Below, one piece after another: positions 5,662-44,940 of a stretch of 64,000 bases of DNA. Below the pieces are notes generated by a model, which did no database searches, had not been told where the DNA came from, and worked only from the letters and a program-made list of their open reading frames with translations. The translations under genes and the position numbers were made by a program. The first letter of the stretch is position 1. Each line of letters begins with the position of its first letter. Source of the DNA: Acidocella aromatica (GTDB taxonomy: Bacteria; Pseudomonadota; Alphaproteobacteria; Acetobacterales; Acetobacteraceae). The stretch spans positions 62,001 to 126,000 of the forward strand of contig NZ_JACHFJ010000004.1 of the NCBI RefSeq assembly GCF_014201825.1. The letters run 5' to 3'.

Positions 5662-7212
<1,551 letters not shown>

Positions 7213-7265: not shown

Positions 7266-7300
7266 TGCAAATTTGCATGACATTTCATGGCAATTTTGCA
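7266..7300. promoter_or_regulatory. Palindromic upstream activator sites
   Basis: TGCAAATTTGCA at 7266-7277 is a perfect 12-bp palindrome. A second, imperfect copy GGCAATTTTGCA lies at 7289-7300, with centres about 23 bp apart (two helical turns). They sit 51-85 bp upstream of the -24/-12 promoter, where enhancer-binding proteins usually bind. The same GCAAATTTGC core recurs at 17808-17817 in front of the other island operons. Which of the two encoded activators binds is unknown. Confidence 0.65.
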
Positions 7301-7350
7301 AAAAATTCCCAGGCACAAAAATAAACCAATAAATTTCAATAAGTTATTTT

Positions 7351-7366
7351 TGGCACGGTGGTTGCT
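7351..7366 (+). promoter_or_regulatory. Sigma-54 (-24/-12) promoter of the permease-ligase-P450 operon
   Basis: TGGCACG-N4-TTGCT matches the sigma-54 consensus TGGCACG-N4-TTGCW exactly, with GG (7352-7353) and GC (7364-7365) separated by 10 bases. It lies about 145 bp upstream of the permease start. Two genes for sigma-54 activators are encoded in the same island, which supports a real promoter. Confidence 0.85.
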
Positions 7367-7509
7367 CATCCCTCTCTGTCCATCTCGCGATGGGCAGGGA
7401 AGACCCCCGCCAAGACCGGACCCATAAAACCGGCGTGGAGGGGGAGACGCGAATCACATGGCGCAGGCCGTGGCTGATTCTTGGTGTCTAATGTTCAAGG
7501 GAGTTGTTA

Positions 7510-9006
7510 ATGGAACCGCATGAGCATCACGCAGATGCCGTCCACGTCGCCTCTGACGACGTGCAACTGGCAGCGCTTGGGTATAGCTCGAATTTCGACC
7601 GCACCATGTCCGTGTGGCAGAATTTCGCCTTGGGATTCACTTATCTTTCGCCGGTTGTCGGCGTGTATTCTGTTTTTGCCTTCGGGTTGCAGGCCGGCGG
7701 CCCGCCGATGATCTGGTCCTATGTGCTCGCGGGCCTGGGGCAGTTCCTCGTGGCGCTGGTATTTGGCGAGGTCGTCTCGCAATTCCCCATCTCGGGTGGG
7801 CTGTACCCCTGGGCGCGCCGCTTGGTTGGGCGCCGCTGGGCCTGGATGGCCGGCTGGCTCTATGGTTGGGCGCTGTTCACCACTATCGCCGCCGTGACCC
7901 TTGGGGCGGGGCCGTTCCTGGCCACGCTGTTCGGGGTGAGTAACACGCCGGTATTCACCACTATCGCGGCGCTGGCGCTGCTTGGGCTGTCCACCGCCAT
8001 CAACATGCGTGGCACCAAGCTGCTGGCCCAGGTGGCGATGTTCGGCTTCATCTGCGAACTTGTTGGCGCCATCGTGGTGGGGATCGACCTGTTCACCCTT
8101 CACCGGGTGCAGCCATTTTCTGTGGTGTTCAACACCTTCAACATTCAGGGCACCGGTTCTTACTGGCCAGCCTTCCTGGCGGCGGCGCTCGTCGGGCTGT
8201 TCTGTTGCTACGGCTTCGAAGCGTGCGGCGACGTGGCGGAAGAGACGCCCAATCCCGGCGTCAAGATTCCCAAGGCGATGCGCATGACGATTTATGTCGG
8301 TGTCGGCGCGTCCATCTTCGTCTGCCTGGCGCTGATGATGTCGATCCCCAACATGGCCGACGTGATCTCCGGCAAGGTCGCCGACCCGATCGGCGAGGTG
8401 CTGGCCACCGCGTTCGGGCCGATCGGCGCCAAGGCGGTCATCGTGGTGGTGATGGTCTCGTTCATCTCCTGCGTGCTCAGCCTGCAGGCCGCCGTCAGCC
8501 GCCTGCTGTTCGCCTATGCGCGTGACAAGATGATTATCGGCAGCACCTTCCTCACCCGTCTGGCCAAGAACGCTCATGTGCCCGAGGGCTCGCTGTTCGT
8601 GGCCGGGCTGGTGCCGGCGGCGATCGTGGTGATCGGCTACTTCCTGCAGGATGCCCTGGCCACGGTGCTGAACTTCGCGGTGATCGGCATCTATCTATCC
8701 TTCCAGATGGTGGTTGTGGCGGCGCTTTACGCCCGTGCCCGCGGCTGGCAGCCGAGCGGTCATTTCCGCCTGGGGGTCTGGGCTTGGCCGGTGAATATTG
8801 TGGCGCTGGCCTATGGTGTTTCCGCCATCGTCAACATGGCTTGGCCGCGCACGCCCTCCGAGGCTTGGTACCTGAACTGGTCCATGCCGCTCACGGTCGT
8901 GATCATCGGCGGTGCTGGCATTTTCTACATGCTGGTCGGGCGCCCGTATCTGCGCGGAACCGCACCCTATGCCGACGCAGCAAAGCTGCACAAGCGCCTG
9001 GGCTGA
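7510..9006 (+). CDS. APC-superfamily amino acid/amine permease
   Basis: 498 residues with about 12 hydrophobic segments, beginning near residue 35 (WQNFALGFTYLSPVVGVYSVF) and including the consensus helix-2 region GGPPMIWSYVLAGLGQFLVA and FPISGGLYPWARRLVG. The family takes up amino acids, GABA, choline-like or other amines by cation symport. The start at ATG 7510 is preceded by AAGGGAG with 6-nt spacing. First gene of the sigma-54 operon, 30 nt before a GS-like ligase gene, so I infer that it imports the amine that is then glutamylated. The substrate cannot be read from the sequence. Confidence 0.87.
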   Translation: MEPHEHHADAVHVASDDVQLAALGYSSNFDRTMSVWQNFALGFTYLSPVVGVYSVFAFGLQAGGPPMIWSYVLAGLGQFLVALVFGEVVSQFPISGGLYPWARRLVGRRWAWMAGWLYGWALFTTIAAVTLGAGPFLATLFGVSNTPVFTTIAALALLGLSTAINMRGTKLLAQVAMFGFICELVGAIVVGIDLFTLHRVQPFSVVFNTFNIQGTGSYWPAFLAAALVGLFCCYGFEACGDVAEETPNPGVKIPKAMRMTIYVGVGASIFVCLALMMSIPNMADVISGKVADPIGEVLATAFGPIGAKAVIVVVMVSFISCVLSLQAAVSRLLFAYARDKMIIGSTFLTRLAKNAHVPEGSLFVAGLVPAAIVVIGYFLQDALATVLNFAVIGIYLSFQMVVVAALYARARGWQPSGHFRLGVWAWPVNIVALAYGVSAIVNMAWPRTPSEAWYLNWSMPLTVVIIGGAGIFYMLVGRPYLRGTAPYADAAKLHKRLG

Positions 9007-9036
9007 TCCTGATCCTCTAACTAACGGATAACTTAA

Positions 9037-10365
9037 ATGACGACTGAATTGACGGCCGGGGGCATGCCCCCGGATCCGCGAGGGGCGGCTTGTTTCCACG
9101 TCGTCCTGCCGGATATCGACGGCGGCCTGCGTGAACGCCGCGTCTCCCGCGAAACTTTCGAGGCCAACGTGTGTACCGGCGGCAGCTTCTGCAACGTGCT
9201 GCATAAATGGGACGCCGCCGACAACGTGTTCGGCGACGCGCCCTTCGAGAGCGAGGCGGTGGCGGTGGACGGGTCCTCGTATCGTCCTTACCCGTTCGAG
9301 CCCAACGCGGCCTGGGTGGTCACCGACTTCACCGGCCCGTCCGCCGAGACCAGCACGCGCAACGTGCTAATCCGGCAGATCGAGAAGGCCCGCAAACTCG
9401 GCTTTTCCATGCAGGCGGCGTTTGAGTTCGAGTGGCTGGTGTTCGAGGAGGACGCCGCCAGCCTGCGCGCCAAGCACTACGAGGGACTGACCCCGTTCGC
9501 GGTGGATAACCGCTGCTGGGACACGCTCTCGGGTGCCGCCAATGCGCCGTTGATCGCAGCGCTTGAGGAGACGCTGGCGGCGGCGGACATCACCACTGCC
9601 GGGTTGGGCATGGAGCTGGGTAAGGGCTGCCTGGAGGCCACGCTGCGCCATACCGACCCGCTGCGCGCCGCCGATGACGCGGTGTTCTTCAAGGCCGTGA
9701 CCAAGGCGTTCTTCCGCCAGCAGGGCATGAGCGCCTGCTTCATGGCGCAGTCGGACGCCGCGGCCCCTGGGCTTTCCGGCCATATCCAGCTTTCGGTGCT
9801 GGATGCGTCGGGTAAGAACATCTTCGCCGCCGGGCCGGGCGAGCTTTCCGAAGCAGGGCGGCATTTCGTCGGCGGCGTACTGAAGCTGCTGCCCGAGGCG
9901 CTGGCGCTGCCCGCGCATACGGTGAACGCCTACCGCCGCATGACGCCGGGCAACTGGGCGCCGCGCACCGCCACCTGGAGCCTGGGCGGCTACACCACGG
10001 CCATCCGCGCGGTAACGGAGCCGCTCGCCGCCCCGCGCCTCGAATTCCGAATCCCCGCCGCTGATGTGAATCCCTGGCTGGGCCTGGGCTTTTTCCTCGG
10101 TGCCGGGCTGTGGGGCATCGAGAACCGCATCGCGCCATCCGAGCCGGTGCGTGCCTCGGGCAATGAATCCGCCCTGCCGGGCCTCACCCCGCTGCCGCGC
10201 GACCTCTTCGCTGCCACCCAGGCCCTGGCCGGCAGCGACACCGCCGCCGAGCTGTTCGGCAAGCCCTTCATCGACCGCTTCGTGCAGTCGCGCCTGCATG
10301 AGGTGGAGGCTCTGCGCCGTGCCGTGAGCGTGGCCGAGAAGTCCCGTTATTTCGAATCCGCTTAA
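9037..10365 (+). CDS. Glutamine-synthetase-family ligase 1 (divergent)
   Basis: 442 residues with the GS C-terminal catalytic fold. Metal-ligand glutamates are in AAFEFEWLVF (Glu130, Glu132); the second acidic block reads LGMELGKGCLEATL (Glu192, Glu199) instead of the usual ExGPGQxE, so the loop contacting the substrate is altered. LSGHIQLSVL holds the ATP/glutamate histidine, NAYRRM the nucleotide-site residues and RLEFRIPAADVNPWL the final Arg motif. Relatives ligate glutamate to amines (gamma-glutamyl amides) rather than ammonia. It lies between the permease and the second GS-like gene. A gamma-glutamyl-amine ligase is likely; the exact amine is unknown. Confidence 0.8.
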   Translation: MTTELTAGGMPPDPRGAACFHVVLPDIDGGLRERRVSRETFEANVCTGGSFCNVLHKWDAADNVFGDAPFESEAVAVDGSSYRPYPFEPNAAWVVTDFTGPSAETSTRNVLIRQIEKARKLGFSMQAAFEFEWLVFEEDAASLRAKHYEGLTPFAVDNRCWDTLSGAANAPLIAALEETLAAADITTAGLGMELGKGCLEATLRHTDPLRAADDAVFFKAVTKAFFRQQGMSACFMAQSDAAAPGLSGHIQLSVLDASGKNIFAAGPGELSEAGRHFVGGVLKLLPEALALPAHTVNAYRRMTPGNWAPRTATWSLGGYTTAIRAVTEPLAAPRLEFRIPAADVNPWLGLGFFLGAGLWGIENRIAPSEPVRASGNESALPGLTPLPRDLFAATQALAGSDTAAELFGKPFIDRFVQSRLHEVEALRRAVSVAEKSRYFESA

Positions 10366-10384
10366 GAAAAAAGGAAACTTCAAA

Positions 10385-11875
10385 ATGGATGCTGTTACCC
10401 ACACCTACAAATCCGACCTCGAAGCCTTCGTCGCCGACCCTCTGCGCGTTGAGCGCGTCCGCCAGGTGGCGGCCAAGATCAAGGCGCTGGGCATCGACCA
10501 TGTGTATTACCAGTTCGTCTCCGCCACTGGGCGCGTGATGGGCAAGGCCGTGCCCGCAGCGCATTGGGAGGCTATCGCCAACAAGGGCGTGCAGCTTTGG
10601 TACGGCGCGGTGGCCGATGTCTGTGCCGACCGGCGCGGCAATTATATCGGCTATCCCTCCAATGCCGCCGAGCTGGTGGCGCTGCCGGATCCCGAGACCT
10701 TCGTGCAGCTCCCCTGGAACAGGCGCGTGGGCCGCGTGTTCTGCACGCTATTCCGCCACCGCGAGGAAGACGTGGACGCGGGTGCGTTCCTCACCTCCGA
10801 CTGCCGCGGCAATCTGCGGCGCATCCATGCGGCGTTCAAGGCCAAGCACGGCATGGAACTGCGCGTGGGCTGCGAGCCGGAGATGATGTGGCTGAAGCGC
10901 GGCGAGGACGGCAAGGCCGCCGGCGGCGTGACCAAGCCCTACGCCTATCACATCGACCAGTTTGAGCAGCTCTCCCCAGTCATCATGCGCGTGCATGACT
11001 ACGCCCGCGCCATGGGGCTGGACATGATCCAGGGCGACCATGAGGACGCTCCGGGCCAGCTCGAACTGAACATCATGTACGACGATGTGCTGCGCAACGC
11101 CGACCGCCTGATCACCTATCGGCAGATCTGCGCCCAGGTGGCGCGTGAGTTCAACCTCATCGCCACCTTCATGACCAAGCCGTTCATGGGTGTTTCCGCC
11201 AATGGCTGCCACCACAACGTGTCGCTGTGGTCGGGCGGCGAGGAGCGGCTGAACCGGCTGGAGTTCGAGGACGAGTTGCCCGGCATGGACGAGATGTTCA
11301 GCTACCGCAAGGGCGGCGCCAATGAGTTCCTGCGCCCCACCGGCGAGTGGATGCCGACCGAAACCGGCCTGCACTGCATCGGCGGCATGATCGAGCATCT
11401 GCCCGCACTTACGGCACTTGGTTCCTCGACCGTGAACTCTTACCGCCGCATGAGCGATCTCGGCTACTGGGCGCCGGTCTATGCCGATTGGGGCATGCAG
11501 AACCGCACCGTGGGCATCCGCGTTTCCGCCCCCGGCCGTGTGGAATACCGCGCCGTGGACAGCCTGGTGAACCCATACCTGATGGGCGGCGCGCTGCTGC
11601 GCACCTTCGATGACGGCCTGACCAACCGGCGCGACCCTGGCCAGCCGGAGCAGCGCAACATCTACGAGGCGATGGAAGCCGGCAAGCAGGTGAAGCGCCT
11701 GCCGACGGATCTCGGCGCGGCGCTGAACGCGTTGGAGGAAGACGAGGTGGTGATGAGCGCCTTGCCGGGCGACATGTCGCGCGTGTTCTTCGAGCTGAAG
11801 CGCGACGAATGGGAGCGCTTCATCTCCACCGTCACCGAGTGGGACTTCAACCGCTACCTGGAAATGATCCCGTAA
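10385..11875 (+). CDS. Glutamine-synthetase-family ligase 2 (gamma-glutamylanilide-synthase-like)
   Basis: 496 residues, close in length and motif order to GS-like ligases of aniline degradation (TdnQ/AtdA1). GS beta-grasp residues lie in the first 120 aa; catalytic motifs are CEPEMMWL (Glu164, Glu166), DHEDAPGQLELNI (retains the PGQ loop), NGCHHNVSLW (His276/His277), NSYRRM and RVEYRAVDS. It should form a gamma-glutamyl amide from an amine, glutamate and ATP. It is separated from ligase 1 by 19 nt and precedes a P450 gene. It keeps the canonical loop that ligase 1 has lost, so the two may act on different amines or as a hetero-assembly. Housekeeping GlnA is less likely given context. Confidence 0.82.
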   Translation: MDAVTHTYKSDLEAFVADPLRVERVRQVAAKIKALGIDHVYYQFVSATGRVMGKAVPAAHWEAIANKGVQLWYGAVADVCADRRGNYIGYPSNAAELVALPDPETFVQLPWNRRVGRVFCTLFRHREEDVDAGAFLTSDCRGNLRRIHAAFKAKHGMELRVGCEPEMMWLKRGEDGKAAGGVTKPYAYHIDQFEQLSPVIMRVHDYARAMGLDMIQGDHEDAPGQLELNIMYDDVLRNADRLITYRQICAQVAREFNLIATFMTKPFMGVSANGCHHNVSLWSGGEERLNRLEFEDELPGMDEMFSYRKGGANEFLRPTGEWMPTETGLHCIGGMIEHLPALTALGSSTVNSYRRMSDLGYWAPVYADWGMQNRTVGIRVSAPGRVEYRAVDSLVNPYLMGGALLRTFDDGLTNRRDPGQPEQRNIYEAMEAGKQVKRLPTDLGAALNALEEDEVVMSALPGDMSRVFFELKRDEWERFISTVTEWDFNRYLEMIP

Positions 11876-11936
11876 TATTTCACCTTCCATCCGGGGCGGC
11901 TTTGGCTGCCCCGGCCCGTGCAGAAAGGACGGACAG

Positions 11937-13142
11937 ATGAGTGTCACATTGGACGCCGATTTCCTGAATGTTGCCGACCCGGCTTTTTCCATCCGCTCGC
12001 AGGCGGTGCGCGATGCGCGCGAGCGCAACTGGTACGCCCGTACGCCCTATGGCCTCGCGATTCTTCGCTATGCCGAGGTGAACGCGCTGATCAAGGACCC
12101 GCATCTGCGCCAGGGCAGCTACGCCTGGCCCGCGCATAACGGGGTGACCGACGGCGCCTTCAAGCTCTGGTGGGACAATATCCTGCTCAACAAGGAGGGC
12201 GCCGATCATTCCCGCCTGCGCAAGCTCATCAGCGCCGCCTTCACGCCCAAGCTGCTCAAGAACCTTACTCCGCGTTTCGATGCGCTGGCCAACGAACTGC
12301 TCGACGGCTTCATCGACGAAGGCCGTTGCGAGTTCATGGGCGATTTCTCCGAGCCCTACGCCACCCGCGTGATCTGCATGCTGCTCGGCACCCGCGAGGC
12401 CGATTGGCGCATGATCGCCGATTGGGCGACGCAAATGGGCATGGCGCTGGGCGTGAACTACAAGCGCGACCAGAAGATCGTGGACGCCGCGACGGAAGCT
12501 TTGTTCGACTATTCGCGCGGGCTGATCCGCGAGCGCCGCACCAATCCCGGCGAGGACTTCCTCACCCAGCTCGTCCAGGCTTCCGACAATGATGGCGCGC
12601 TGAGCGATGCCGAATTGCTGGACATCATCGTGCTGGCGATCTTCGGCGGCATCGACACCACCCGCAACCAGCTCGGCCTTGGCGTGCAGACGTTCATCGA
12701 CCACCCGGACCAGTGGGAGCTGTTGGCGAAGCAGCCGGAGCTTTCCGCCCAGGCCGTGGAAGAGGTGATGCGCGTGCGCCCCACCGTCACCTGGGTCACC
12801 CGCGAGGCGGTGGAGGATTTTGAGTTCCAGGGGCTCCCCATCAAAGCTGGCACCACGGTGCATCTGTTCTCGGAATCCGCTGGTTCCGATCCGCGCGCGG
12901 TGGAGAACCCGGGCTTCGACATTGCCGCCCGCCGCCCGCTGCATTTCGGCTTCGGCATGGGCGGGCATCACTGCCTGGGCCATGCCGTGGCCCGGTCCGA
13001 CATGGCGGTGGTGCTGCGCGTTTGGCCCGCGCGCGTGACCGCCCTGGCCAATGACGGGCCTGGCCAATGGCTGCCCGATAGCGGCAATACCGGCCCGCTC
13101 TCGCTGCCCATCACGTTCCAGCGTCGTGGAGGCGTGGTATGA
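11937..13142 (+). CDS. Cytochrome P450 (class I, soluble)
   Basis: 401 residues, normal for a bacterial soluble P450. The I-helix reads FGGIDTTRN (oxygen-activating Asp240-Thr241-Thr242), the K-helix ExxR is Glu276 to Arg279, and the haem loop is HFGFGMGGHHCLGH with axial ligand Cys346. No transmembrane anchor. It needs a ferredoxin and reductase; both are encoded on the opposite strand at 16149-17693. It overlaps the amidotransferase gene by 4 nt (ATGA). Position between the glutamyl-ligases and the amidotransferase suggests that it oxidises the amine or its gamma-glutamyl amide, for example by N-dealkylation or ring hydroxylation; this is inference. Confidence 0.92.
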   Translation: MSVTLDADFLNVADPAFSIRSQAVRDARERNWYARTPYGLAILRYAEVNALIKDPHLRQGSYAWPAHNGVTDGAFKLWWDNILLNKEGADHSRLRKLISAAFTPKLLKNLTPRFDALANELLDGFIDEGRCEFMGDFSEPYATRVICMLLGTREADWRMIADWATQMGMALGVNYKRDQKIVDAATEALFDYSRGLIRERRTNPGEDFLTQLVQASDNDGALSDAELLDIIVLAIFGGIDTTRNQLGLGVQTFIDHPDQWELLAKQPELSAQAVEEVMRVRPTVTWVTREAVEDFEFQGLPIKAGTTVHLFSESAGSDPRAVENPGFDIAARRPLHFGFGMGGHHCLGHAVARSDMAVVLRVWPARVTALANDGPGQWLPDSGNTGPLSLPITFQRRGGVV

Positions 13143-13903
13143 CCGCCAAGCCGCGCCTCGCCTATATCGCGCAGTTCGCGCATCCTGGCTCTTACGACAA
13201 ATCCAAATGGGTGCGCGTGCTGGGCGGCGATGACGAGACCATCGGCTTCAAGGCCCTGCTGGACTCCTCAGGGCTGGCCGACGAGTTCGAGTATGTCGGC
13301 GTCTCCGCGCATGAGGGCGAGGACATCTCGCTCGATTACGATGTGGCCGTGCTTGGCGGCAGCTTTGCCTCGGTGCATGACGACTACCCCTGGCAGCGCG
13401 AGATCCAGAAATGGCTCACCGCCTGGCGGCGCACAGGCAAGCCCCTGATGGGCATTTGCGGCGGGCATCAACAGATGTCAGTCGTGCTTGGCGGCCATGT
13501 CGGCAAACGGCCCGAGGGGCCGGTCGTGGGCAGCCTGCCCGTCACCCGCACCGAGGCCGGGCGCAGCCATTTTCTGTTCCGGGGCTTTACCGATGACTCC
13601 CAGTTCTTCTTCGGCAATTTCGACCATGTGGACATTGCCCCGCCCGGCGCCGTCACTTTGGCCACACGCCCCGGCCTGCCGCACGCGGCGCTGGACCATG
13701 GCGGCAACTGGGTTTCGGTGCAGTTCCACCCGGAGACGACTTGCGACCGCATGGCGACATGTTGGGCCGAGCTCGACCCCGAACAGTCCCGCTGCTACAG
13801 CTTCATTCCCGATTGCCAGGGCATGGTGGAGAACTTCCTCCGCCACGCCTTGACGGCGCGTTGCGAAAGCGCAGCGCCTCGCGCAATACTGCAGCATGGA
13901 TGA
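13139..13903 (+). CDS. Class-I glutamine amidotransferase-like gamma-glutamyl hydrolase
   Basis: 254 residues of the GATase-1 fold. The catalytic triad is visible: Cys107 in MGICGGHQQ, His197 and Glu199 in VQFHPET. There is no synthetase partner domain. In aniline clusters (TdnT/AtdA2) and in putrescine breakdown (PuuD) such enzymes hydrolyse gamma-glutamyl amides, and that role is inferred here from its place in the operon, translationally coupled to the P450 gene. It would release glutamate and the oxidised amine or its product. Confidence 0.82.
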   Translation: MTAKPRLAYIAQFAHPGSYDKSKWVRVLGGDDETIGFKALLDSSGLADEFEYVGVSAHEGEDISLDYDVAVLGGSFASVHDDYPWQREIQKWLTAWRRTGKPLMGICGGHQQMSVVLGGHVGKRPEGPVVGSLPVTRTEAGRSHFLFRGFTDDSQFFFGNFDHVDIAPPGAVTLATRPGLPHAALDHGGNWVSVQFHPETTCDRMATCWAELDPEQSRCYSFIPDCQGMVENFLRHALTARCESAAPRAILQHG

Positions 13904-13915
13904 CGAGGTGGCACC

Positions 13916-14742
13916 TTGACGGCACGGCAGGATGGCGGGCTGACGAACCAGCCTGACGATGGCGGCAACTGGGACGATTTCATCAGCGATCTGCTGGTGG
14001 ATGTCGTTGACGCGACTGGCCAAATCATATGGGTGAATAGCACGCAGGCCGAGTGCCTGGGCTTGTCCCCGGCTGACATGGCCGGGCTGAATATCGAGGC
14101 CTGCTACGCGCCGGGTTCGGCCGAGGCGTTGCGCGAACTGTTCGGACGTACCCTGCCCGACGGTTTCGTGACCACGCTGGAGCTGGACCTCGCCGGCCAG
14201 GGCGGGCGGCGTGTGCGCACATTGGCCCGCTGCCGCAAGATCCTGCGCGCCGGGCAGCCCTGTTTCCGGCTCATCAAGCTCAATCTCGGCCATGTCGGCC
14301 GGGCGTACGACGACCTCCAGGCCGATAACGAGCTGTTCCGCCGTATCATTGCCGATGCCAGCGAGGCGCATTGGTGCATCGAGTTTCTCGAACCGGTCGA
14401 TATCAACCGCGCGCGTGAGGAGGTGGTGGACCAAATCTTCGCCAACCGCTCGATCTGGCGCGTGGCCAACCCGGCCATGATGGCTCTCTACCAGTTGCCG
14501 AATGCCGGAGAGTTCCGCTCTTTCGACGTCCGGCTCTACTGGCCGCGCACGCCGGAGAACGAGGCGTTCGTCGGTCAGATCATCGATGCCAATTACCACA
14601 TTGATGCTGGTATTTCCTCGGACCGCCGCCATGACGGCACCACGGTGAATCTCGAGAACGATGTGCGGGCTGAGATCCGCGAGACTTTTCTGTACCGCAT
14701 CTGGGGGAATTGCCGCCTGGTCCGCCCGCCCGCGCAGACGAC

Positions 14743-14746
<4 letters not shown>
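13916..14746 (+). CDS. PAS-domain sensor protein coupled to a sigma-54 activator
   Basis: 276 residues. Start TTG 13916 is chosen because GAGGTG lies 6 nt upstream and no in-frame ATG is available near it. Two PAS-like modules: about residues 20-130 (VDVVDATGQIIWVNSTQAECLGL) and 140-270 (IIADASEAHWCIEFLEP and ANPAMMALYQLPN). It has no kinase, GGDEF or DNA-binding domain. The stop overlaps the next start by 4 nt (ATGA, 14743-14746), so sensor and AAA+ activator are made together; probably the detached input module of that activator. The ligand is unknown. Confidence 0.7.
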
Positions 14747-16148
<1,402 letters not shown>

Positions 16149-16152
<4 letters not shown>

Positions 16153-17378
16153 CCGGCCAGTGTTTCCTTCAGCGGGATGTTCCCATCGGCGGCGCGGCTG
16201 GCATCCAACCGCGCACCGCTCGACACCAGGGCTTTTCCGGCGGCATAGTCCTTGGTGCGGTTCACGCAGTCCAGCGCGATGAGCCGTCCCTCCCGCAGAT
16301 ACAGGATGGCAAAGCTGCGGGCAGCCTGATCGCCGCGCAACAACGCCGTGTCGTGCCCCATGTTCAGACCGGCGCTTTGCAGGCGCAGATCATACTGGTT
16401 GGACCAGAACCAGGGCAGAGCCTCATAAGGCTTGGCCTGGCCAGCGATGGCATGAGCAGCGGTGATCGCCTGGTCTGTCGCGTTCTGTACCGATTCAAGC
16501 CGTACCCACTCGCCCTGGGCAAAGCGGTTATGGTGGCGCGCGCCATCGCCCGCCGCGTAGATGCCGGGCAGGCTGGTGGCGCAGAATTCGTCCACCTCCA
16601 CCCCGTTACCCCCGGCCGCCCCCGCCGCCAGCAGCGGCGCCACCACCGGCACGATGCCGATGCCCGTGATCACGAAATCGGCGGGAAGTTCCTCGCCATT
16701 GACCAGCACGACGCTGGTAACGGCGCCGTTCGCGCCACGAAATTCGCGCAGCTGGGCGCCAAGGCGGATCTCCACCCCATGCGCGCGATGCTCGGCCTCG
16801 ATGAAGCGCGAGAGCGCCTCCCCGGCGACGCGCGCCAGCACGCGCTCCTGCGCCTCCAGCACGGTGACATGATGCCCACGCTTGCGCAGCACTGCCGCCA
16901 TCTCCAGCCCGATATACCCGCCGCCAATGACGACCGCGCGGCGGGGGACGTCGAGTTTGGCGGCGATCGCGTCGGCATCTTTCTTGTCGTGCAGCGTGAA
17001 CACGCTGGCGAGGTCCGCGCCGGGGCAGGTGAGGCGCCGGGGCGTGCCGCCCGTGGCCCAGAGCAGCTTGCCGAAGCCGAAATTGCGGCCATTGGCCAGC
17101 GTCACCTGTTGGCGCGTGGGATCAATCGCCGTCACGGCGGCGTTGGTGAGGATGTCGATTTTCTGCTCGGCCCAGAAGCGGGCGGGACGGATCAGGCAGG
17201 TCTCGAATGTGCGCTGCCCGAGCATGTAGTCTTTCGAGAGTGGCGGCCGCTCATAGGGCAATTCAGCCGTGGCCTCTAGAATGACCACGCTGCCCGTAAA
17301 GCCGAGTTGGCGCAGGGTGATGGCGGCGGTGGCACCCGCCTGGCCGCCCCCGACGATCAGGACATCTGATGCGGACAA
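16149..17378 (-). CDS. FAD-dependent NAD(P)H:ferredoxin reductase (putidaredoxin-reductase type)
   Basis: 409 residues, the usual length. N-terminal FAD-binding VLIVGGGQAGATAA, PPLSKDYML typical of P450/oxygenase reductases, NAD-binding VVIGGGYIGLEMAAVL in the middle, and second FAD motif GIYAAGDGA. It passes electrons from NAD(P)H to the [2Fe-2S] ferredoxin encoded 3 nt upstream. This pair is the natural electron donor for the P450 at 11937. It is transcribed from the minus strand, convergent with the regulator gene, probably from the sigma-54 promoter at 17747-17762. Confidence 0.92.
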
Positions 17379-17381
17379 GGC

Positions 17382-17693
17382 TCAATCCTCGGGTGCGATG
17401 ATCACATGCAGCGGCGCCATGCCCTCGGCCAGGATGACTTGGCAGGCGAGGCGCGAATTCTTCTGGCGTTCCGAGGTGCCGTCGAGCAGGTCGTCTTCAT
17501 CCTCGCTCATGGCCGAGAGCGGGGCTTCGCTGTCCACGTACACATGGCAGGTGGCGCATGAACAGCTTCCCCCGCACAGGGCCTTGATGTCGTAAATGCC
17601 CTGGTCGCGGATTGTCTCCATGAGGGACATCCCCGGCGCGGCGGCAAATTTATGTTCTGCGCCCGTGCGATCGATCACGACTAAATCCACCAA
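17382..17693 (-). CDS. [2Fe-2S] ferredoxin (adrenodoxin/putidaredoxin type)
   Basis: About 103 residues. Cluster ligands follow the adrenodoxin pattern Cys-x5-Cys-x2-Cys in LCGGSCSCATCHVYV and a distant Cys in RLACQV. The strong Shine-Dalgarno AGGAGG (17703-17708) lies inside the longest possible frame, 9 nt before TTG 17693, with GTG at 17690 as the alternative; I therefore prefer TTG or GTG over the ATG at 17711, which would place the ribosome site inside the gene. Electron carrier from the reductase encoded next to the P450 and possibly other oxygenases. Confidence 0.88.
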   Translation of the reverse strand: MVDLVVIDRTGAEHKFAAAPGMSLMETIRDQGIYDIKALCGGSCSCATCHVYVDSEAPLSAMSEDEDDLLDGTSERQKNSRLACQVILAEGMAPLHVIIAPED

Positions 17694-17746
17694 GACACAA
17701 TTCCTCCTCATTCTGAGTTCAGCGATAATTACTTGCCAAAGTAAAC

Positions 17747-17762
17747 AGCAAGAATTGTGCCG
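17747..17762 (-). promoter_or_regulatory. Sigma-54 promoter of the ferredoxin operon
   Basis: On the minus strand the sequence reads CGGCACA-N4-TTGCT, with GG (17761-17760) and GC (17749-17748) 10 bases apart. It differs from consensus only at the outermost T and the last G of the -24 box. It points toward the ferredoxin and ferredoxin-reductase genes. Confidence 0.72.
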
Positions 17763-17806
17763 GAGAGGAAAGCAAGAAGAAGCGCGGCGATTGGTGTTTT
17801 GTGTGG

Positions 17807-17818
17807 TGCAAATTTGCC
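17807..17818. promoter_or_regulatory. Shared upstream activator palindrome
   Basis: TGCAAATTTGCC contains the perfect 10-bp palindrome GCAAATTTGC, identical to the core at 7267-7276. It lies between the two divergent sigma-54 promoters (45 bp from the minus one, 154 bp from the plus one), so a single site could serve both. Confidence 0.65.
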
Positions 17819-17971
17819 TATGCCGCTGCGATTTTGTTTGGGGTTTGTCCGTGCCGGGCGTCCATCTTCTACCATTTGCTCATATCCGGGAAATTCTCCA
17901 AGCTTGCCGCGCATTTTTCCGCAATTGACGAAATTTGAGCTCAGCAGAGGGCAAAATCGGCGCTTTTGGTT

Positions 17972-17987
17972 TGGCATGGGCTTTGCG
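17972..17987 (+). promoter_or_regulatory. Sigma-54 promoter of the reductase-Rieske operon
   Basis: TGGCATG-N4-TTGCG: GG at 17973-17974 and GC at 17985-17986, spaced by 10 bases. Two mismatches to the extended consensus. It lies 40 bp upstream of the GTG start of the VanB-like reductase gene. The 17694-18026 gap is fully explained as a divergent regulatory region. Confidence 0.75.
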
Positions 17988-18026
17988 AACCCGTCCCTCA
18001 ACAAAACCAGAATTGGGGAGAAACAG

Positions 18027-18971
18027 GTGCTTACAGTTCAAGTCATGCGGCGCCGTGTGGTTGCCGACAACATCATCGCGCTTGAATTGCGCTCCGCCGC
18101 TGGCGCCACGCTGCCTGCCTTCAGTGCCGGCGCTCATATTGACGTGATGCTGCCCAACGGCCTGATGCGGCAGTACTCGCTGCTGAACGACCCGGTCGAG
18201 ACGCATCGCTACGAGATCGCCATTCTGCGCGATCCCAACAGCCGGGGTGGTTCGCTCAGCGCGCATGCGGATATACGCGAAGGGACGGCGCTGAACATCG
18301 GCGAGCCTCGCAATTTGTTCCCGCTGGCGCCCGAGGGCGGGGCGCTGCTGTTCGCGGGCGGTATCGGGGTGACGCCGCTGCTTGCCATGGCCCATACGCT
18401 GCACCGGCTGGGCAGAGCGTTCGCCCTGCATTACTGCACTCGCACCAAATCCGCCGCCGCCTTCCGCGACGAACTACGCGCCGGCCCGTTCGGCGGCGCT
18501 ATGTGGTTCCACACGGATGATGGTCCCGCCAGCCAGAAACTCGACGCCGCCGCCGTGCTGGCCGCCGCTTCGCCCGGCACGCATATATATGTCTGCGGCC
18601 CGGCGGGGTTCATCGCGCATATCTACGCCACTGCCCGCGCCGCAGGCTGGGCGGAAGATCGGCTGCATTCGGAATCCTTCGCTGCAACTCCTGCAGCTCC
18701 CGGCGGTGAGTTCAATCTACGCCTGACCAAGCGCGGCATCGTCGTGCCGGTGAGGGCGGAGCAATCGGCTCTGGATGCGCTGCTGGCGGTTGGGGTCGAT
18801 CTGCCCGTCTCCTGCGAGCAGGGCATTTGCGGCACCTGCGTCACCCGCGTGCTGGAGGGCGAGCCCGAACACCGCGACAGCTTTCTCACCAAGGCCGAGC
18901 GTGCCCGCAACAACTGCTTCACCCCCTGCGTCTCACGCGCCCGCACGCAAGAGCTGGTGCTCGACCTCTGA
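18027..18971 (+). CDS. VanB-like oxygenase reductase (flavin-NAD-[2Fe-2S])
   Basis: 314 residues from GTG 18027, chosen for GGGGAG 6 nt upstream and for agreement with the family length; a longer frame runs back through the promoter. Order: flavin-binding barrel (about 1-100, RQYSLLNDP), NAD-binding domain (105-215, LLFAGGIGVTPLLAMAH and YVCGPAGFI), plant-type ferredoxin domain (230-314) with CEQGICGTCVTRV and a final Cys in CFTPC. It moves electrons from NAD(P)H to a Rieske oxygenase of the phthalate/vanillate class, encoded 75 nt downstream. Whether it can also serve the P450 is open. Confidence 0.9.
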   Translation: MLTVQVMRRRVVADNIIALELRSAAGATLPAFSAGAHIDVMLPNGLMRQYSLLNDPVETHRYEIAILRDPNSRGGSLSAHADIREGTALNIGEPRNLFPLAPEGGALLFAGGIGVTPLLAMAHTLHRLGRAFALHYCTRTKSAAAFRDELRAGPFGGAMWFHTDDGPASQKLDAAAVLAAASPGTHIYVCGPAGFIAHIYATARAAGWAEDRLHSESFAATPAAPGGEFNLRLTKRGIVVPVRAEQSALDALLAVGVDLPVSCEQGICGTCVTRVLEGEPEHRDSFLTKAERARNNCFTPCVSRARTQELVLDL

Positions 18972-19046
18972 GTTTCGTGGCGGCTGAAGGCGCGGCCGCC
19001 ATGATCCCCATCAAGCGCCGTTCAACAAAAACATGAGGACCCAAGA

Positions 19047-20093
19047 ATGCTGCAAAAATCCCCTGGTATCTTCCTGGAGAACGCCTGGTACGTCGCCGCG
19101 CTCTCCACCGACCTCAACGGCACCGATCTCCTCGCGCGCACGCTGCTGAACCGGAACGTGCTGATGTACCGCACCGAGAACGGCGAGGCGGTGGCGATGC
19201 AGGATCGCTGCCCGCACCGCTTCGTGCCGCTGCATCTGGGCAAGCGCGATGGCGACGAGGTGGTGTGCCCTTATCATGGCCTGCGCTTCAACGGCTCAGG
19301 CGCCTGCACGCATAACCCGCACGGCAACAAGCTCATCCCCAAGGCCGCCAAGGTACGCACCTACCCGCTGCTGGAGCGCTACGGTTTTGTCTGGATCTGG
19401 CTGAGCGACGCCGAGGCGGATGAGAGCCTGCTGCCCGACTACTCGCCGCTGGTCACTGGCCATGAGAACGCCGTGGGCTACACCTACATGCACACCGCCG
19501 CGAATTACGAACTGATCGTGGATAACGTGATGGATCTCAGCCATATCGACCATCTGCACGGCGAGATCATCACCACGCGCGGCAAGCTCTCGCCCATCAC
19601 CCCCGCGCTGCGTGAGAGCGACACCACCCTCTCCGCCCGGTGGGAGTGGGAGCAGACCCCGGCTTTGCTGATCTTCAACCAGTTCCTGCCCAAGCCCGAG
19701 GACGAGGCCCGGCATTTCTTCGACATCACCTGGGCGCCGCCCGCCAATATCCAGCTCTCGGTGGGGGCGACCCAGAATAACGGCGCGCTCGACCTCGCGA
19801 ACTGCATCGGCCAGTACGATTTGCACACCGTCACCCCCGAGACCGAGACCACCACGCATTACTGGTTCGCCACGCGGCGCAATCATCTGGTCGAGGATGA
19901 AGCCTTCAACAAGATCAAGATCGAAGCCATGCACGGCGCTTTCGCCAACGAGGATCTGCCCCTGCTGGAGGCGGTGGAGAAGGAGATGGATGGCGGCGAG
20001 TTCTTCTCATTGTCACCGGTGCTGATGAGCAACGACATTGCCCCGGTGAAGGTGCGGCGCCTCCTGCGTCAGCTCATCGAACAACAGGGCTGA
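19047..20093 (+). CDS. Rieske non-haem iron oxygenase, VanA/dicamba-demethylase class
   Basis: 348 residues. Rieske centre: Cys55 and His57 in DRCPHRFV, Cys74 and His77 in VCPYHGLRF. Mononuclear iron: His166 and His171 in DNVMDLSHIDHLHG, with Asp163 as the bridge to the next subunit's cluster. The family does O- or N-demethylation and ring-methyl hydroxylation of aromatic or similar compounds. Single-component alpha-subunit type, no beta subunit. Co-transcribed with the VanB-like reductase under the 17972 promoter and ended by the hairpin at 20117-20140. The substrate is unknown; N-dealkylation of an amine would fit the neighbouring genes. Confidence 0.9.
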   Translation: MLQKSPGIFLENAWYVAALSTDLNGTDLLARTLLNRNVLMYRTENGEAVAMQDRCPHRFVPLHLGKRDGDEVVCPYHGLRFNGSGACTHNPHGNKLIPKAAKVRTYPLLERYGFVWIWLSDAEADESLLPDYSPLVTGHENAVGYTYMHTAANYELIVDNVMDLSHIDHLHGEIITTRGKLSPITPALRESDTTLSARWEWEQTPALLIFNQFLPKPEDEARHFFDITWAPPANIQLSVGATQNNGALDLANCIGQYDLHTVTPETETTTHYWFATRRNHLVEDEAFNKIKIEAMHGAFANEDLPLLEAVEKEMDGGEFFSLSPVLMSNDIAPVKVRRLLRQLIEQQG

Positions 20094-20116
20094 AACTTTC
20101 CTCTGCGTACAACTTG

Positions 20117-20147
20117 CCCGGCGTCATTCATGGCGCCGGGTCTTTTT
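20117..20147 (+). terminator. Rho-independent terminator after the Rieske operon
   Basis: CCCGGCG (20117-20123) pairs with CGCCGGG (20134-20140), followed by TCTTTTTC. The 3' part overlaps the end of the convergent activator gene. Confidence 0.75.
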
Positions 20148-21833
20148 CAGCCTATATTCCAACTGCCCGCGCCGCAGCTTCAACAGCCGTGCCGCCGCCG
20201 AGATATTGCCGTTGCTGCTTTTCAGCGCATAGTCGAAGAGTTGCGTCTCCAAACTCTCCAATCCGCCGGACTGAGCTAGCAGCGCGCCGAGATCATCCGG
20301 TACGGACGGTGCGGCAGGCGTATCGGCGTCGAGATGGCCATCCGCGGCCAGATGCAGCACCCGTGGCGCCAAAGCTTCCTCGCCCGAGAACAGGTGCCGC
20401 ACGTCCAGTGTGCCGCCCTCGTCGGCCAGGATCACGGCGCGCTCGATCATGTTCTCCAACTCGCGGACATTGCCGGGCCAGTCATAGGCCCATAACGCCT
20501 CCGCGGCGCGCTGGGTGAGGCCGCTGATCGTCTTGCCCAGGCGCTCGGTCGTGCGTTTGACGAACACGTTGACCAGCAGCGGAATGTCCTCGCGGCGCTC
20601 GCGCAAAGGCGGGATCTCGATGGGAAACACGTTCAGGCGGAAGAATAGATCCTCGCGGAACCGCCCCGCCGCCACCTCGGCGCGCAGATCGCGGTTGGCC
20701 GCCGCCACCACGCGCACATCCACCCGGCGCACCCGCGTATCGCCCACGCGCTCCACCTCGCGCTCCTGCAACACGCGCAGCAGCTTGCCCTGGGCGGAAA
20801 GTGGCAGGCTGCTGACTTCATCGAGGAAGATGGTGCCGCCCTCGGCGCGCTCGAACTTGCCGGGCCGCGCGGCGGTGGCGCCGGTGTACGCCCCCTTCTC
20901 CACGCCGAACAGCTCGGCCTCGACCAGCTCCGCCGGGATGGCGGCGCAGTTGAGCGACACGAGCGGCCCGCCCGCGCGGCGGCTGATGGCGTGCAGCGTC
21001 GTGGTGAAGCGCTCCTTGCCCACGCCGCTTTCGCCCAGGAACAGCACCGTGGCGTTGGTGGTGGCCACGCGCTTGATCTTGTGCGCCACGGCGTTGAAAG
21101 GGGCGGAGGCGCCGACGAGGTCGGGCAGTATGTTGGCCGGCGGCGGGGCCGGTGGTGGCATCGTTGCATGCGTGCGTACCGGGCGTGGCGGCGACACGAA
21201 ATCCTCGATCTGCATGAAACGGAGATCCGCCGCGGCGTCTTCCCATTCCTCCAGCGGCCGTCCCACCACCCGGCAGCGCGCATGGCCCATGGCCACGCAT
21301 TCCGTCTCGCGCCATAAAATCGGCCGTCCCATGAGCGAGGTGGTGAAGCCGCAGGCATAGCCGACCATCATCCAGCAGGCGGGCTCGCCGCACACGCCAA
21401 AATGCGCCAGGTGCGCCTCGGCCTCCCACGAGGCCTGCCAGTAATAATCACCCCAGAACTCGCCGGTGCGGGCGTTGAACTGCATGCGGTCGATGGCCTG
21501 GTTGCGTACAAAACCTTCGATCTCGCGCAGGCGCGGCCCGAGCGCCAGCACGCGGCTCAGCTCTTCGCCCTCATGCGCACGCAGGTGCAGCGCATCGGCC
21601 ATGCCCTGCTGGTAGCCCAGGCGGGTGAAGATCTCCCGGGCCTTTTCCTGCCCCAGGCGTTCGACAATCTCATGTCGCAGCGCCGCGACCGAAAAGCCGT
21701 GCATCAGCAGCATTCTTTGGTCGAAGAGTTGGATGTGCCCGGTATCGGGCGAGAAATGCAGGTGGCCGGCAAGTACGCGGTCGTCGGTTGACTCGGCAAT
21801 GAGAGTCATCGGCCGCCTGGATGCGGATGACAT
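20124..21833 (-). CDS. XylR/DmpR-type sigma-54 activator (XylR-N, V4R, AAA+, HTH)
   Basis: 569 residues from ATG 21833, preferred because GGGGGAA lies 8 nt upstream. XylR-N ligand domain about 20-120, V4R domain about 125-190 with clustered cysteines (GVCGEPACWMM, YACG, ETECVAMGHARC), AAA+ domain with Walker A GESGVGKE (267-274) and GAYTGA loop, and C-terminal Fis-type HTH (NGNISAAARLLKLRRGQLEYRL). In XylR/DmpR/PoxR an aromatic effector binds the N-terminal part and relieves repression of the ATPase. Convergent with the Rieske gene, so it probably senses an aromatic substrate or intermediate of the island. It is the second sigma-54 activator here. Confidence 0.9.
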   Translation of the reverse strand: MSSASRRPMTLIAESTDDRVLAGHLHFSPDTGHIQLFDQRMLLMHGFSVAALRHEIVERLGQEKAREIFTRLGYQQGMADALHLRAHEGEELSRVLALGPRLREIEGFVRNQAIDRMQFNARTGEFWGDYYWQASWEAEAHLAHFGVCGEPACWMMVGYACGFTTSLMGRPILWRETECVAMGHARCRVVGRPLEEWEDAAADLRFMQIEDFVSPPRPVRTHATMPPPAPPPANILPDLVGASAPFNAVAHKIKRVATTNATVLFLGESGVGKERFTTTLHAISRRAGGPLVSLNCAAIPAELVEAELFGVEKGAYTGATAARPGKFERAEGGTIFLDEVSSLPLSAQGKLLRVLQEREVERVGDTRVRRVDVRVVAAANRDLRAEVAAGRFREDLFFRLNVFPIEIPPLRERREDIPLLVNVFVKRTTERLGKTISGLTQRAAEALWAYDWPGNVRELENMIERAVILADEGGTLDVRHLFSGEEALAPRVLHLAADGHLDADTPAAPSVPDDLGALLAQSGGLESLETQLFDYALKSSNGNISAAARLLKLRRGQLEYRLKKTRRHE

Positions 21834-22036
21834 CGGTAGCGTTTCCCCCAAAACTTCTTTTTCCGGAAGCGTACAGCATGGGAGGTGTTTGCGCTACGGT
21901 CTTCGGGTTGCCACTCATCCCACCGGAATTGCTTTCCTGCGGATAGCTGGACCAATTTTCATGTCTGTGCCGTTGCCTGCGGGAGTATTCACCCCAGTGG
22001 GGCTGCCGTTTGGCGCCCTGTTTTGGGAGAAACATC

Positions 22037-38339: not shown

Positions 38340-38350
38340 GGGGACGAACC

Positions 38351-42481: not shown

Positions 42482-42895
42482 CTATGCGCCGGGCACGGCC
42501 CGCACGCGGCGTTGCAACTCCGGCAGCGCCGCCGCCACGGCTGGGGAGAGCGGCGCGCCATGGTCAAAACACACTCCTTCCACCGCGAAGACGAGCACGC
42601 GCGGCGGCAGTTCCCCCAGCGCGCGGGCCAGTTCCAGCGCGGCGGCGAGGCCGAAGCCGTGCGACGACACAGCCTCCAGCGCGGCGGGCAGCTGCGCGGC
42701 GGAGGCGTCGAATTCATGAATGCGCCCCGGCGTGCCGTTGGGGGCGGCGGCATCCAGGCAGATGAGCGTGGTCACGCCCGCGAGGTCGATCGTCAGCGGG
42801 TTTGCATGGGCCCCGCCCAACTGCGCGGTGGCGATAGGGCCGAGCGCGTCGTCCCCCCGGTCCGGGTTGCCGAAGCCAAGGATGAGCGTGGTCAT
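42482..42895 (-). CDS. [NiFe] hydrogenase maturation protease
   Basis: 137 residues, slightly short for HycI/HyaD-type endopeptidases. GFGNPDRGDDALGP carries the first nickel-binding acidic residue, ICLDAA the second and SSHGFGLAAALELA the His motif. The stretch between residues about 25 and 45 is shorter than usual. It removes the C-terminal tail of the large subunit after nickel insertion. Start overlaps the stop of the large-subunit gene by 4 nt. Confidence 0.85.
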   Translation of the reverse strand: MTTLILGFGNPDRGDDALGPIATAQLGGAHANPLTIDLAGVTTLICLDAAAPNGTPGRIHEFDASAAQLPAALEAVSSHGFGLAAALELARALGELPPRVLVFAVEGVCFDHGAPLSPAVAAALPELQRRVRAVPGA

Positions 42896-44938: not shown

Positions 44939-44940
44939 GG

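What the first reader, a model, noticed from the sequence alone, without database searches (positions are those of the whole stretch)
7266..21833. Candidate new amine-catabolism island combining gamma-glutamylation, P450 and Rieske chemistry
Seen: permease, two GS-like ligases, P450, class-I amidotransferase, a PAS regulator pair, P450-type ferredoxin and reductase, VanA/VanB-like Rieske pair and an aromatic-type activator, all tied by similar promoters. Known: aniline clusters (tdn/atd) pair a GS-like ligase and an amidotransferase with a Rieske dioxygenase; mycobacterial morpholine/piperidine genes pair a P450, ferredoxin and reductase with a GS-like gene. I know of no described cluster that holds both sets plus two GS-like genes. 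Inference: an amine, perhaps aromatic or N-alkylated, is imported, glutamylated, oxidised twice and deglutamylated.
Basis: partly seen in the sequence, partly recalled or inferred. Interest (0 to 1): 0.88.

Follow-up and report, generated by a model that had tools for sequence, protein, structure and literature searches.

The report
Two-ligase amine operon beside guaiacol genes
An acid-loving bacterium carries two neighbouring but separate gene sets: one that probably tags an amine with glutamate, oxidises it and removes the tag, using an unusual pair of ligase-like proteins, and another that probably strips a methyl group from a wood-derived phenol.

Summary
The listed genes exist but form two modules, not one island. 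Module A (about 7266-17818): permease, GS1, GS2, P450, amidotransferase, PAS protein, sigma-54 activator, ferredoxin, reductase. Four other genomes of the genus keep its seven-gene order; none has the Rieske/XylR triad beside it. Module B (about 17972-21851), that triad, has an oxygenase 64-65% identical to a solved enzyme and to a gene of Cupriavidus necator N-1, source of guaiacol O-demethylase; in one relative it lies about 20 kb from module A. The shared 'promoters' are sigma-54 sites, and each module has its own activator. A double-oxidation amine pathway is unlikely.

Module A resembles the Ipu-type gamma-glutamyl-amine pathway, with two new features. The adjacent GS1-GS2 pair recurs in 11 loci outside Acidocella, with a related P450 (6) or a PhyH-type oxygenase (5); the oxygenase changed at least twice. 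In all 16 pairs GS1 lacks an ATP-site arginine that 24 of 24 unpaired relatives keep, so GS1 is probably a modified partner of GS2. Substrate unknown; no activity shown.

The parts
7266..7277 (.). Palindrome TGCAAATTTGCA, candidate activator-binding site of the amine operon
   Evidence: Only two matches of 11/12 or better in 64 kb, here and at 17807; simulated mean 0.25. Before the permease it is 12/12 in G012, 11/12 in G025, 10/12 in G017 and G007, below 10/12 in G009.
7351..7366 (+). Sigma-54 -24/-12 promoter of the permease operon
   Evidence: 12 of 12 consensus positions; 11-12 of 12 in all 6 permease upstream regions of the genus that were read, this one included.
7504..9006 (+). APC-family permease (start more likely ATG 7510)
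   Evidence: Pfam AA_permease_2 4e-45; best NCBIfam TIGR03428, urea carboxylase system permease, below cut-off.
9037..10365 (+). GS1: glutamine-synthetase-fold protein with Tyr319 in place of an ATP-site arginine
   Evidence: Pfam Gln-synt_C; Tyr/Phe in 16 of 16 GS1 with an adjacent GS2, Arg in 24 of 24 without one in the flanks held; predicted fold TM 0.80 to 11zs.
10385..11875 (+). GS2: candidate gamma-glutamyl amide ligase, metal ligands and ATP-site arginine kept, Trp in place of the ammonium-site Glu
   Evidence: Pfam Gln-synt_C; residue alignment; best PDB hit glutamate-methylamine ligase 9qur.
11937..13142 (+). Cytochrome P450 (35% identical to its best solved relative, 3p3l)
   Evidence: Pfam p450; 86-93% orthologues in 4 other genomes of the genus.
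13139..13903 (+). Class-I glutamine-amidotransferase-type hydrolase (deglutamylation, inferred)
   Evidence: Pfam GATase 1e-14.
13916..14746 (+). PAS-domain protein, putative sensor partner
   Evidence: Pfam PAS_4/PAS_9; next to the activator in L021-L024.
14710..16152 (+). PAS / sigma-54 AAA+ activator with GAFTGA motif
   Evidence: Pfam Sigma54_activat 2e-58; motif read in the translation.
16149..17378 (-). Ferredoxin reductase
   Evidence: Pfam Pyr_redox_2, Reductase_C; 74% orthologue beside the operon in G007.
17382..17711 (-). [2Fe-2S] ferredoxin, presumably for the P450
   Evidence: Pfam Fer2; also beside the operon in G007, G017 and G009; sigma-54 site upstream in all four.
17747..17762 (-). 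Sigma-54 -24/-12 promoter of the ferredoxin operon
   Evidence: 10 of 12.
17807..17818 (.). Second copy of the palindrome (11 of 12)
   Evidence: lies between the ferredoxin and VanB promoters.
17972..17987 (+). Sigma-54 -24/-12 promoter of the Rieske pair (separate module)
   Evidence: 10 of 12; orthologous VanB in G007 has a 12-of-12 site at L075:4698(-).
18027..18971 (+). VanB/GdmB-like Rieske reductase (separate module; start inferred)
   Evidence: Pfam Fer2, NAD_binding_1; 64% to G007, 49% to C. necator N-1 pBB1.
19047..20093 (+). VanA/GdmA-like Rieske oxygenase, probable O-demethylase (separate module)
   Evidence: Pfam Rieske, VanA_C; 7qwt E 9e-154, 64.2% over 335 aligned residues; 64.7% to C. 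necator N-1.
20124..21851 (-). XylR/DmpR/MobR-type sigma-54 activator (separate module)
   Evidence: Pfam XylR_N, V4R; best NCBIfam MobR, phenol degradation, 524 bits, below its cut-off of 999.

Best explanation
The region holds two adjacent, independently regulated sigma-54 catabolic modules. Module A (about 7266-17818) is an amine-use operon. The permease imports an amine. GS2, possibly with GS1 as a non-ligating or regulatory partner subunit, spends ATP to join it to the gamma-carboxyl of glutamate. The P450, fed by ferredoxin and reductase, hydroxylates the glutamylated amine. The GATase-type hydrolase then releases glutamate and an amino alcohol (or ammonia, if hydroxylation is on the carbon next to N and the amide falls apart to glutamine). 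The PAS protein and its sigma-54 activator switch on both the permease and the ferredoxin operons. Module B (about 17972-21851) is a guaiacol-type Rieske O-demethylase with its own phenol-type activator. Shown by sequence: gene families, conserved order, promoter sites, the GS1 arginine loss, the oxygenase swap. Inferred: every reaction, the substrates, a GS1-GS2 complex and the regulator targets.
For: Order permease-GS1-GS2-P450-GAT-PAS-activator kept in 4 of 4 other loci of the genus read, the activator cut by the contig end in one. Ferredoxin beside it in all 4 loci where both sides could be read, this one included. Sigma-54 sites conserved before the permease (6 of 6) and the ferredoxin (4 of 4). 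Rieske/XylR triad beside the amine operon only in the window; in G007 it starts about 20 kb beyond the permease on the same contig. VanA 64% to 7qwt and 65% to C. necator N-1; on a Sphaerotilus plasmid the homologous pair lies between two sigma-54 regulators (58% and 48% to XylR) and a phenol hydroxylase operon. GS1 and GS2 carry Trp where a canonical GS (8ool) has Glu, as methylamine ligase 9qur does; all metal ligands are kept. The GS1-GS2 pair stands with a PhyH oxygenase instead of the P450 in 5 loci, one of them followed by the same PAS and activator genes. Ipu pathway with permease, IpuC, P450 and amidotransferase (PMC6776027, passages).
Against: No substrate or activity is known for any gene here. 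The palindrome copy at 17807 also lies in the region shared with the VanB promoter, so cross-regulation is not excluded. In A. aquatica another aromatic Rieske operon (benABC with benD and benE) lies just beyond the activator; it is a different, well-known system and has no sigma-54 match of 10 or more, but it shows that aromatic oxygenase operons can settle beside this amine operon. The reductase is linked in only 2 of 4 loci. Loss of one arginine does not prove loss of activity in GS1. No XylR relative was found within 5 kb of the C. necator or Acinetobacter VanA homologues. The 7qwt entry is titled only 'Rieske (2Fe-2S) domain protein'; that it is GdmA is recalled.
Confidence: 0.75

Rival explanations
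1. One reading: one island in which a single amine, perhaps aromatic or N-alkylated, is glutamylated, oxidised by the P450 and again by the Rieske system, and deglutamylated.
For: Genes are contiguous and all three operon heads have sigma-54 sites; a palindrome copy lies in the ferredoxin/VanB intergenic region; A. aquatica has a different aromatic Rieske operon (ben) beside its amine operon. I raised this rival from 0.06 to 0.08 for that last fact.
Against: The VanA/VanB/XylR triad is beside the amine operon in 0 of 4 other loci of the genus and separate in G007; relatives of VanA sit with phenol hydroxylase genes; own XylR/MobR-type activator.
Confidence: 0.08
2. GS1 and GS2 are both working ligases with different amine ranges, or act on the two ends of a diamine; the Arg to Tyr/Phe change in GS1 is compensated.
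For: GS1 keeps all metal ligands and the arginines at the three other positions looked at and is under clear sequence constraint; ABC transporters accompany several modules, the one scanned having a general solute-binding protein.
Against: The arginine is kept in 24 of 24 unpaired relatives, in 15 of 15 GS2 and in 6 of 6 other GS-family proteins of the same genome that I fetched, and lost in 16 of 16 paired GS1.
Confidence: 0.35
3. The GATase is a safety valve that hydrolyses excess gamma-glutamyl amide, as described for the aniline system, rather than the last catabolic step.
For: Described for the aniline dioxygenase system in the introduction of PMC11335346.
Against: The Ipu pathway postulates the amidotransferase as the productive step (PMC6776027, passages). 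Nothing here distinguishes the two.
Confidence: 0.25

Closest known systems
Ipu pathway for isopropylamine (Arthrobacter aurescens TC1, PMC6776027 passages; the Pseudomonas KIE171 original is not held)
   Same: Permease, GS-like amide ligase, multicomponent P450, amidotransferase, glutamylated intermediate
   Different: Two GS-fold genes here, one with an altered ATP site; PAS/sigma-54 control; oxygenase exchanged for PhyH in relatives; no alcohol or aldehyde dehydrogenase seen in the operon. Sequence identity to Ipu proteins not measured
Aniline / 1-naphthylamine dioxygenase systems (tdn, atd, npa; PMC11335346 abstract and sections 3 and 10)
   Same: GS-like ligase plus GAT-like hydrolase with an oxygenase
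   Different: Their oxygenase is a two-component Rieske aromatic dioxygenase; here the conserved partner is a P450, and the nearby Rieske gene is VanA/GdmA-type and separate
Piperidine/morpholine-type P450 clusters (PMC9477822 passages; PipA and MorABC otherwise recalled)
   Same: P450 with electron carriers and a GS-like gene next to it
   Different: Identity to PipA/MorA not measured; no second GS, GATase or sigma-54 activator in the passages read
Guaiacol O-demethylase GdmAB (PMC12997858, PMC13288931, PMC11837543 passages; original Bleem et al. 2022 not read)
   Same: Module B: VanA-type oxygenase 65% identical to a C. necator N-1 gene, VanB-type reductase
   Different: Activity and substrate untested; XylR/MobR-type activator next to it
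Puu pathway (gamma-glutamylputrescine; recalled)
   Same: Glutamylation, oxidation, hydrolysis; a C26-type hydrolase and an aldehyde dehydrogenase occur in related locus L102
   Different: P450 or PhyH in place of the amine oxidase; two GS-fold proteins

Membership tests
Ipu-type gamma-glutamyl-alkylamine pathway | GS-fold amide ligase without the ammonium-site Glu | tested here: met
   Trp at that position in 15 of 15 GS2 and 15 of 15 GS1 aligned; Glu in 8ool, Trp in 9qur; the residue's role is recalled
Ipu-type gamma-glutamyl-alkylamine pathway | P450 with electron carriers and an amidotransferase together with the ligase | tested here: met
Ipu-type gamma-glutamyl-alkylamine pathway | One amide ligase (IpuC) per cluster, as in the passages read | tested here: not met
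   Two adjacent GS-fold genes; hence called a variant, not a member
Ipu-type gamma-glutamyl-alkylamine pathway | Gamma-glutamyl amide formed and hydroxylated | not testable with these tools
   Needs enzymes and mass spectrometry
Aniline dioxygenase (tdn/atd) system | Rieske aromatic dioxygenase conserved with the ligase and GAT | tested here: not met
   VanA/VanB/XylR beside the operon in 0 of 4 other loci; VanA_C type. A. aquatica has a benzoate dioxygenase there
CYP151 (PipA/MorA/AurH) P450 family | At least 40% identity to a family member (rule recalled) | tested here: inconclusive
   35.1% to 3p3l, which I recall as AurH, CYP151A; PipA and MorA were not at hand
Guaiacol O-demethylase GdmAB (module B) | Close sequence relative of characterised GdmA | tested here: met
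   64.7% to a C. necator N-1 pBB1 gene, 64.2% to 7qwt; that these are GdmA rests on recall plus the strain named in PMC12997858
Guaiacol O-demethylase GdmAB (module B) | Demethylates guaiacol to catechol | not testable with these tools
   Enzyme assay needed
GoaS amide synthetases (PMC11335346) | Additional '15th motif' in the N-terminal domain | not tested
   The motif is in a figure, which is not held

The most novel reading that the evidence does not exclude
GS1 and GS2 form a mixed ring in which GS1 has given up ATP-dependent ligation and shapes, gates or regulates the amine site of GS2: a hetero-oligomeric gamma-glutamyl amide synthetase serving a widespread alphaproteobacterial amine pathway whose oxygenase can be either a P450 or an Fe/2-oxoglutarate enzyme.
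Probability: 0.4. Interest if true: 0.75.

Novelty: new variant of a known kind. Interest (0 to 1): 0.6.

Why it matters
Glutamine-synthetase-fold enzymes normally form rings of identical subunits (recalled). A conserved pair in which one member has lost an ATP-site arginine in every case seen (16 of 16), standing beside two unrelated oxygenase types, points to an undescribed two-subunit way of tagging amines. The GS1-GS2 pair is also a simple marker for amine-use operons in genomes, where such genes are annotated only as 'glutamine synthetase'. Splitting off the Rieske genes keeps a false double-oxidation pathway out of annotation and suggests that this Acidocella can use methoxylated phenols.

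Tried and rejected
One island with two oxidations: rejected on synteny and homology. On rechecking I found a distant Rieske match in A. aquatica beside the amine operon; it is the alpha subunit of a benzoate dioxygenase operon, benA, benB, benC and benD above their NCBIfam cut-offs, with benE. It is not a VanA orthologue, but it is told as evidence against. Similar promoters as proof of co-regulation: rejected, the number of sigma-54 matches of 10 or more (6) being below the simulated mean of 8.35. From I first took G007 VanB to lack a sigma-54 site because I had set a wrong start; the site is there, 12 of 12. A CYP151 label for the P450 was not kept (35%). 2-Phenethylamine, suggested by work on the related genus Acidiphilium, has no support: PMC7142476 (passages) reports no effect on growth of Acidocella sp. 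C78, and the terms glutamine synthetase, gamma-glutamyl, amine oxidase and P450 do not occur in its main text. Substrates of Acidocella aminolytica were not found. IpuC in Roseobacter litoralis (PMC4103551 passages) and RDX strain DN22 (PMC10820124 passages) gave nothing usable. A GS plus PhyH amine pathway in print: one search listed 4 papers (titles and starts of abstracts seen), none on this; searches listed none on a two-GS amine cluster as far as titles and abstract starts show. These searches cover only openly licensed PMC papers.

Limits of the counts. The arginine loss is one evolutionary event (the 16 rows are one side of a branch, 100/100), so 16 against 24 is not a set of independent tests. 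The 24 unpaired genes were read with flanks of about 1.5 kb or less (L117 also with 8 kb, as L129; L092 and L098 have under 350 bases on one side). G012, whose contig ends inside GS1, has Tyr and was left out. Six other GS-family proteins of the genome were fetched, of 8 matches listed for it, GS1 included; none is a Glu-bearing canonical GS, so 8ool is the only such comparison. P450 loci not counted because no GS1-GS2 pair was detected in the stretch held: L026, L028, L030, L035-L041, L043-L056, L058, L062; L027 and L029 have GS2 and P450 without a detected GS1; L031-L034 and L061 have a more distant GS-like gene (38-43% to GS2) and L057 one at 30%.
Full report
Where it lies. The window is G000:C4:62001-126000 of a 2.88-Mb genome.

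Observation. G+C content of the stretch (0.63-0.66) is within the range of its flanks, so composition does not mark it as foreign. The open frame of the VanB-like gene begins at 17757, but alignment with relatives and a ribosome-binding-like GGGGAGA put its start at GTG 18027 (inference).

Two modules. The order permease-GS1-GS2-P450-GATase-PAS-activator is conserved in all four other loci of the genus read (L021-L024; identities 67-94%; in L021 the contig ends inside the activator). In the genus, GS1 orthologues (82% or more) occur in 6 of 38 genomes, one of them (G012) cut by its contig end. P450 orthologues (87% or more) occur in 5 of the 37 genus members. The ferredoxin lies beside the operon in the window, G007, G017 and G009, the four loci where both sides could be read, and the reductase in the window and G007. 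VanA has an orthologue (76-77%) in 1 of the other 37 genus genomes, G007; four more give only 28-36% matches at E 1e-30 or better. In G007 it stands as XylR-VanA-VanB on the same contig, 19.7 kb between the permease and XylR, 26 kb from P450 to VanA.

A result on the other side. In A. aquatica a Rieske gene 26% identical to VanA over 200 residues lies beyond the activator. It is benA of a benzoate dioxygenase operon: benA, benB, benC and benD above their NCBIfam cut-offs, with benE. No sigma-54 match of 10 or more stands near it. In KAb 2-4 the genes next to the ferredoxin are an acyl-CoA dehydrogenase, an AMP-binding ligase and a reductase 44% identical to the window's. So the neighbour changes from species to species while the amine operon stays, which fits separate modules, though it also shows that aromatic operons can be found there.

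What module B is. VanA matches PDB 7qwt at E 9e-154, 64.2% over 335 aligned residues. Its best plasmid hit, 64.7% over the whole length, is Cupriavidus necator N-1 pBB1. PMC12997858 names C. necator N-1, and PMC13288931 C. necator, as a source of guaiacol demethylase GdmAB (passages). That 7qwt is this GdmA is recalled. On a Sphaerotilus plasmid the homologous pair lies between two sigma-54 regulators (58% and 48% to the window's XylR) and a phenol hydroxylase operon; on an Acinetobacter plasmid a phenol monooxygenase gene is about 4.5 kb away. No XylR relative was found within 5 kb of the C. necator or Acinetobacter genes. The window's activator is closest to MobR of phenol degradation in NCBIfam, below that model's cut-off. 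Module B is therefore most likely a guaiacol-type O-demethylase with a phenol-type sensor.

Regulation. A -24/-12 site matching all 12 fixed positions stands at 7351; weaker ones (10 of 12) precede the ferredoxin and VanB. The number of matches of 10 or more in the window (6) is no more than in simulated sequence (mean 8.35), but a 12-of-12 site is rare (0.05). Sites are conserved before the permease in 6 of 6 (11-12 of 12) and before the ferredoxin in 4 of 4 loci of the genus (10-11 of 12). G007 VanB has a 12-of-12 site too. The palindrome TGCAAATTTGCA stands before permease and ferredoxin; at 10 of 12 or better it is also seen before both in G007 and G017, and before neither in G009. This suggests that one activator, presumably 14710-16152, serves both operons. 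Because the second copy lies in the intergenic region shared with VanB, an effect on VanB cannot be ruled out.

What module A is. The pieces match the described Ipu logic: permease, GS-like ligase, P450, amidotransferase (PMC6776027, passages). In GS1 and GS2 the metal ligands are kept, and the residue at the position of Glu327 of bacterial glutamine synthetase (ammonium site; numbering and role recalled) is Trp, as in glutamate-methylamine ligase 9qur and unlike the canonical 8ool. This argues against plain glutamine synthesis. The P450 is 35% identical to its best solved relative 3p3l.

The GS1-GS2 pair. In a sample of 386 alphaproteobacteria, 65 have a GS1-like match at E 1e-70 or better, the window's genome included, but only six others reach 46% identity; all six have GS2 next to GS1. 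One of these six (G195) also has the P450; 2 of the 386, the window's genome included, have it at E 1e-90 or better. In the other five a PhyH-family Fe/2-oxoglutarate oxygenase follows GS2 (Pfam in L102 and L106; 57-69% relatives in L103-L105). L103 is the clearest case: GS1-GS2-PhyH-PAS-activator-ABC transporter, the window's layout with the oxygenase exchanged. With P450 the pair is also found in Defluviimonas (L025), Ruegeria (L059), Paracoccus TOH (L060), Filomicrobium (L042) and G745 (L128). In all, 16 loci: 11 with P450 (5 of them Acidocella), 5 with PhyH. On trees of GS2 and GS1 the two oxygenase types do not form separate groups (3 and 2 label changes); holding either type together is rejected (GS2 p-AU about 3e-51; GS1 8e-6 and 6e-5). 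So the oxygenase changed at least twice, or genes recombined. Groups were set by gene content, but I already knew from identities that the Acidocella GS2 is nearest to PhyH-linked ones (78% and 76%).

GS1 is not an ordinary second ligase. At the position of Arg339 (an ATP-phosphate contact, recalled), all 16 GS1 with an adjacent GS2 have Tyr or Phe (window, the other 15), whereas 24 of 24 GS1-like proteins without a detected GS2 keep Arg, as do 15 of 15 GS2 and 6 of 6 other GS-family proteins fetched from the same genome. The 16 are one side of a branch with 100/100 support, so this is one old change kept ever since. The predicted GS1 model (mean pLDDT 79) has the glutamine synthetase fold (TM 0.80 to 11zs). 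GS2 with P450 but no detected GS1 occurs in L027 and L029, which suggests that GS2 can work alone. The likeliest role of GS1 is partner or regulator of GS2; another catalytic activity is possible.

Limits. No substrate, activity or expression is known. Neighbouring genes in relatives (aldehyde dehydrogenases, GMC oxidoreductases, SHMT) fit the use of an amino alcohol or aldehyde, but do not name the amine. Literature searches covered only the held open library.

Noticed in passing
L102, L103, L104, L105, L106: GS1-GS2 pair followed by a PhyH-family oxygenase instead of a P450: a second glutamylation-oxidation operon type, not found described.
   Followed up: partly
L078:6676-11796 (A. aquatica): Benzoate dioxygenase operon (benE, benABCD) just beyond the amine operon's activator.
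   Followed up: yes
   Followed up: no
L061 (Gordonia KTR9 pGKT2) 9986-15478: A P450 56% identical to the window's stands next to a GS-like stretch, an FAD oxidoreductase and a second P450; I recall this plasmid as the RDX-degradation plasmid (xplAB), so those genes may have arisen beside an amine module.
   Followed up: no
L027 and L029: GS2-P450 without a detected GS1, each with a GMC oxidoreductase near by: perhaps a one-ligase form followed by alcohol oxidation.
   Followed up: partly
window 5704-7212: Acetyl-CoA hydrolase/transferase-family gene just upstream of the amine operon; kept there in G012 (96%), not found beside the operon in the other loci read.
   Followed up: partly
window 42482-47564: Minus-strand nickel-hydrogenase large-subunit homologue and a 4Fe-4S protein, possibly a NiFe hydrogenase cluster.
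   Followed up: no
window 35742-39532: Aconitase-family gene followed by prpF, a likely 2-methylcitrate (propionate) pathway piece.
   Followed up: no
window 4166-4717: S30AE ribosome-hibernation domain fused to a cold-shock domain.
   Followed up: no
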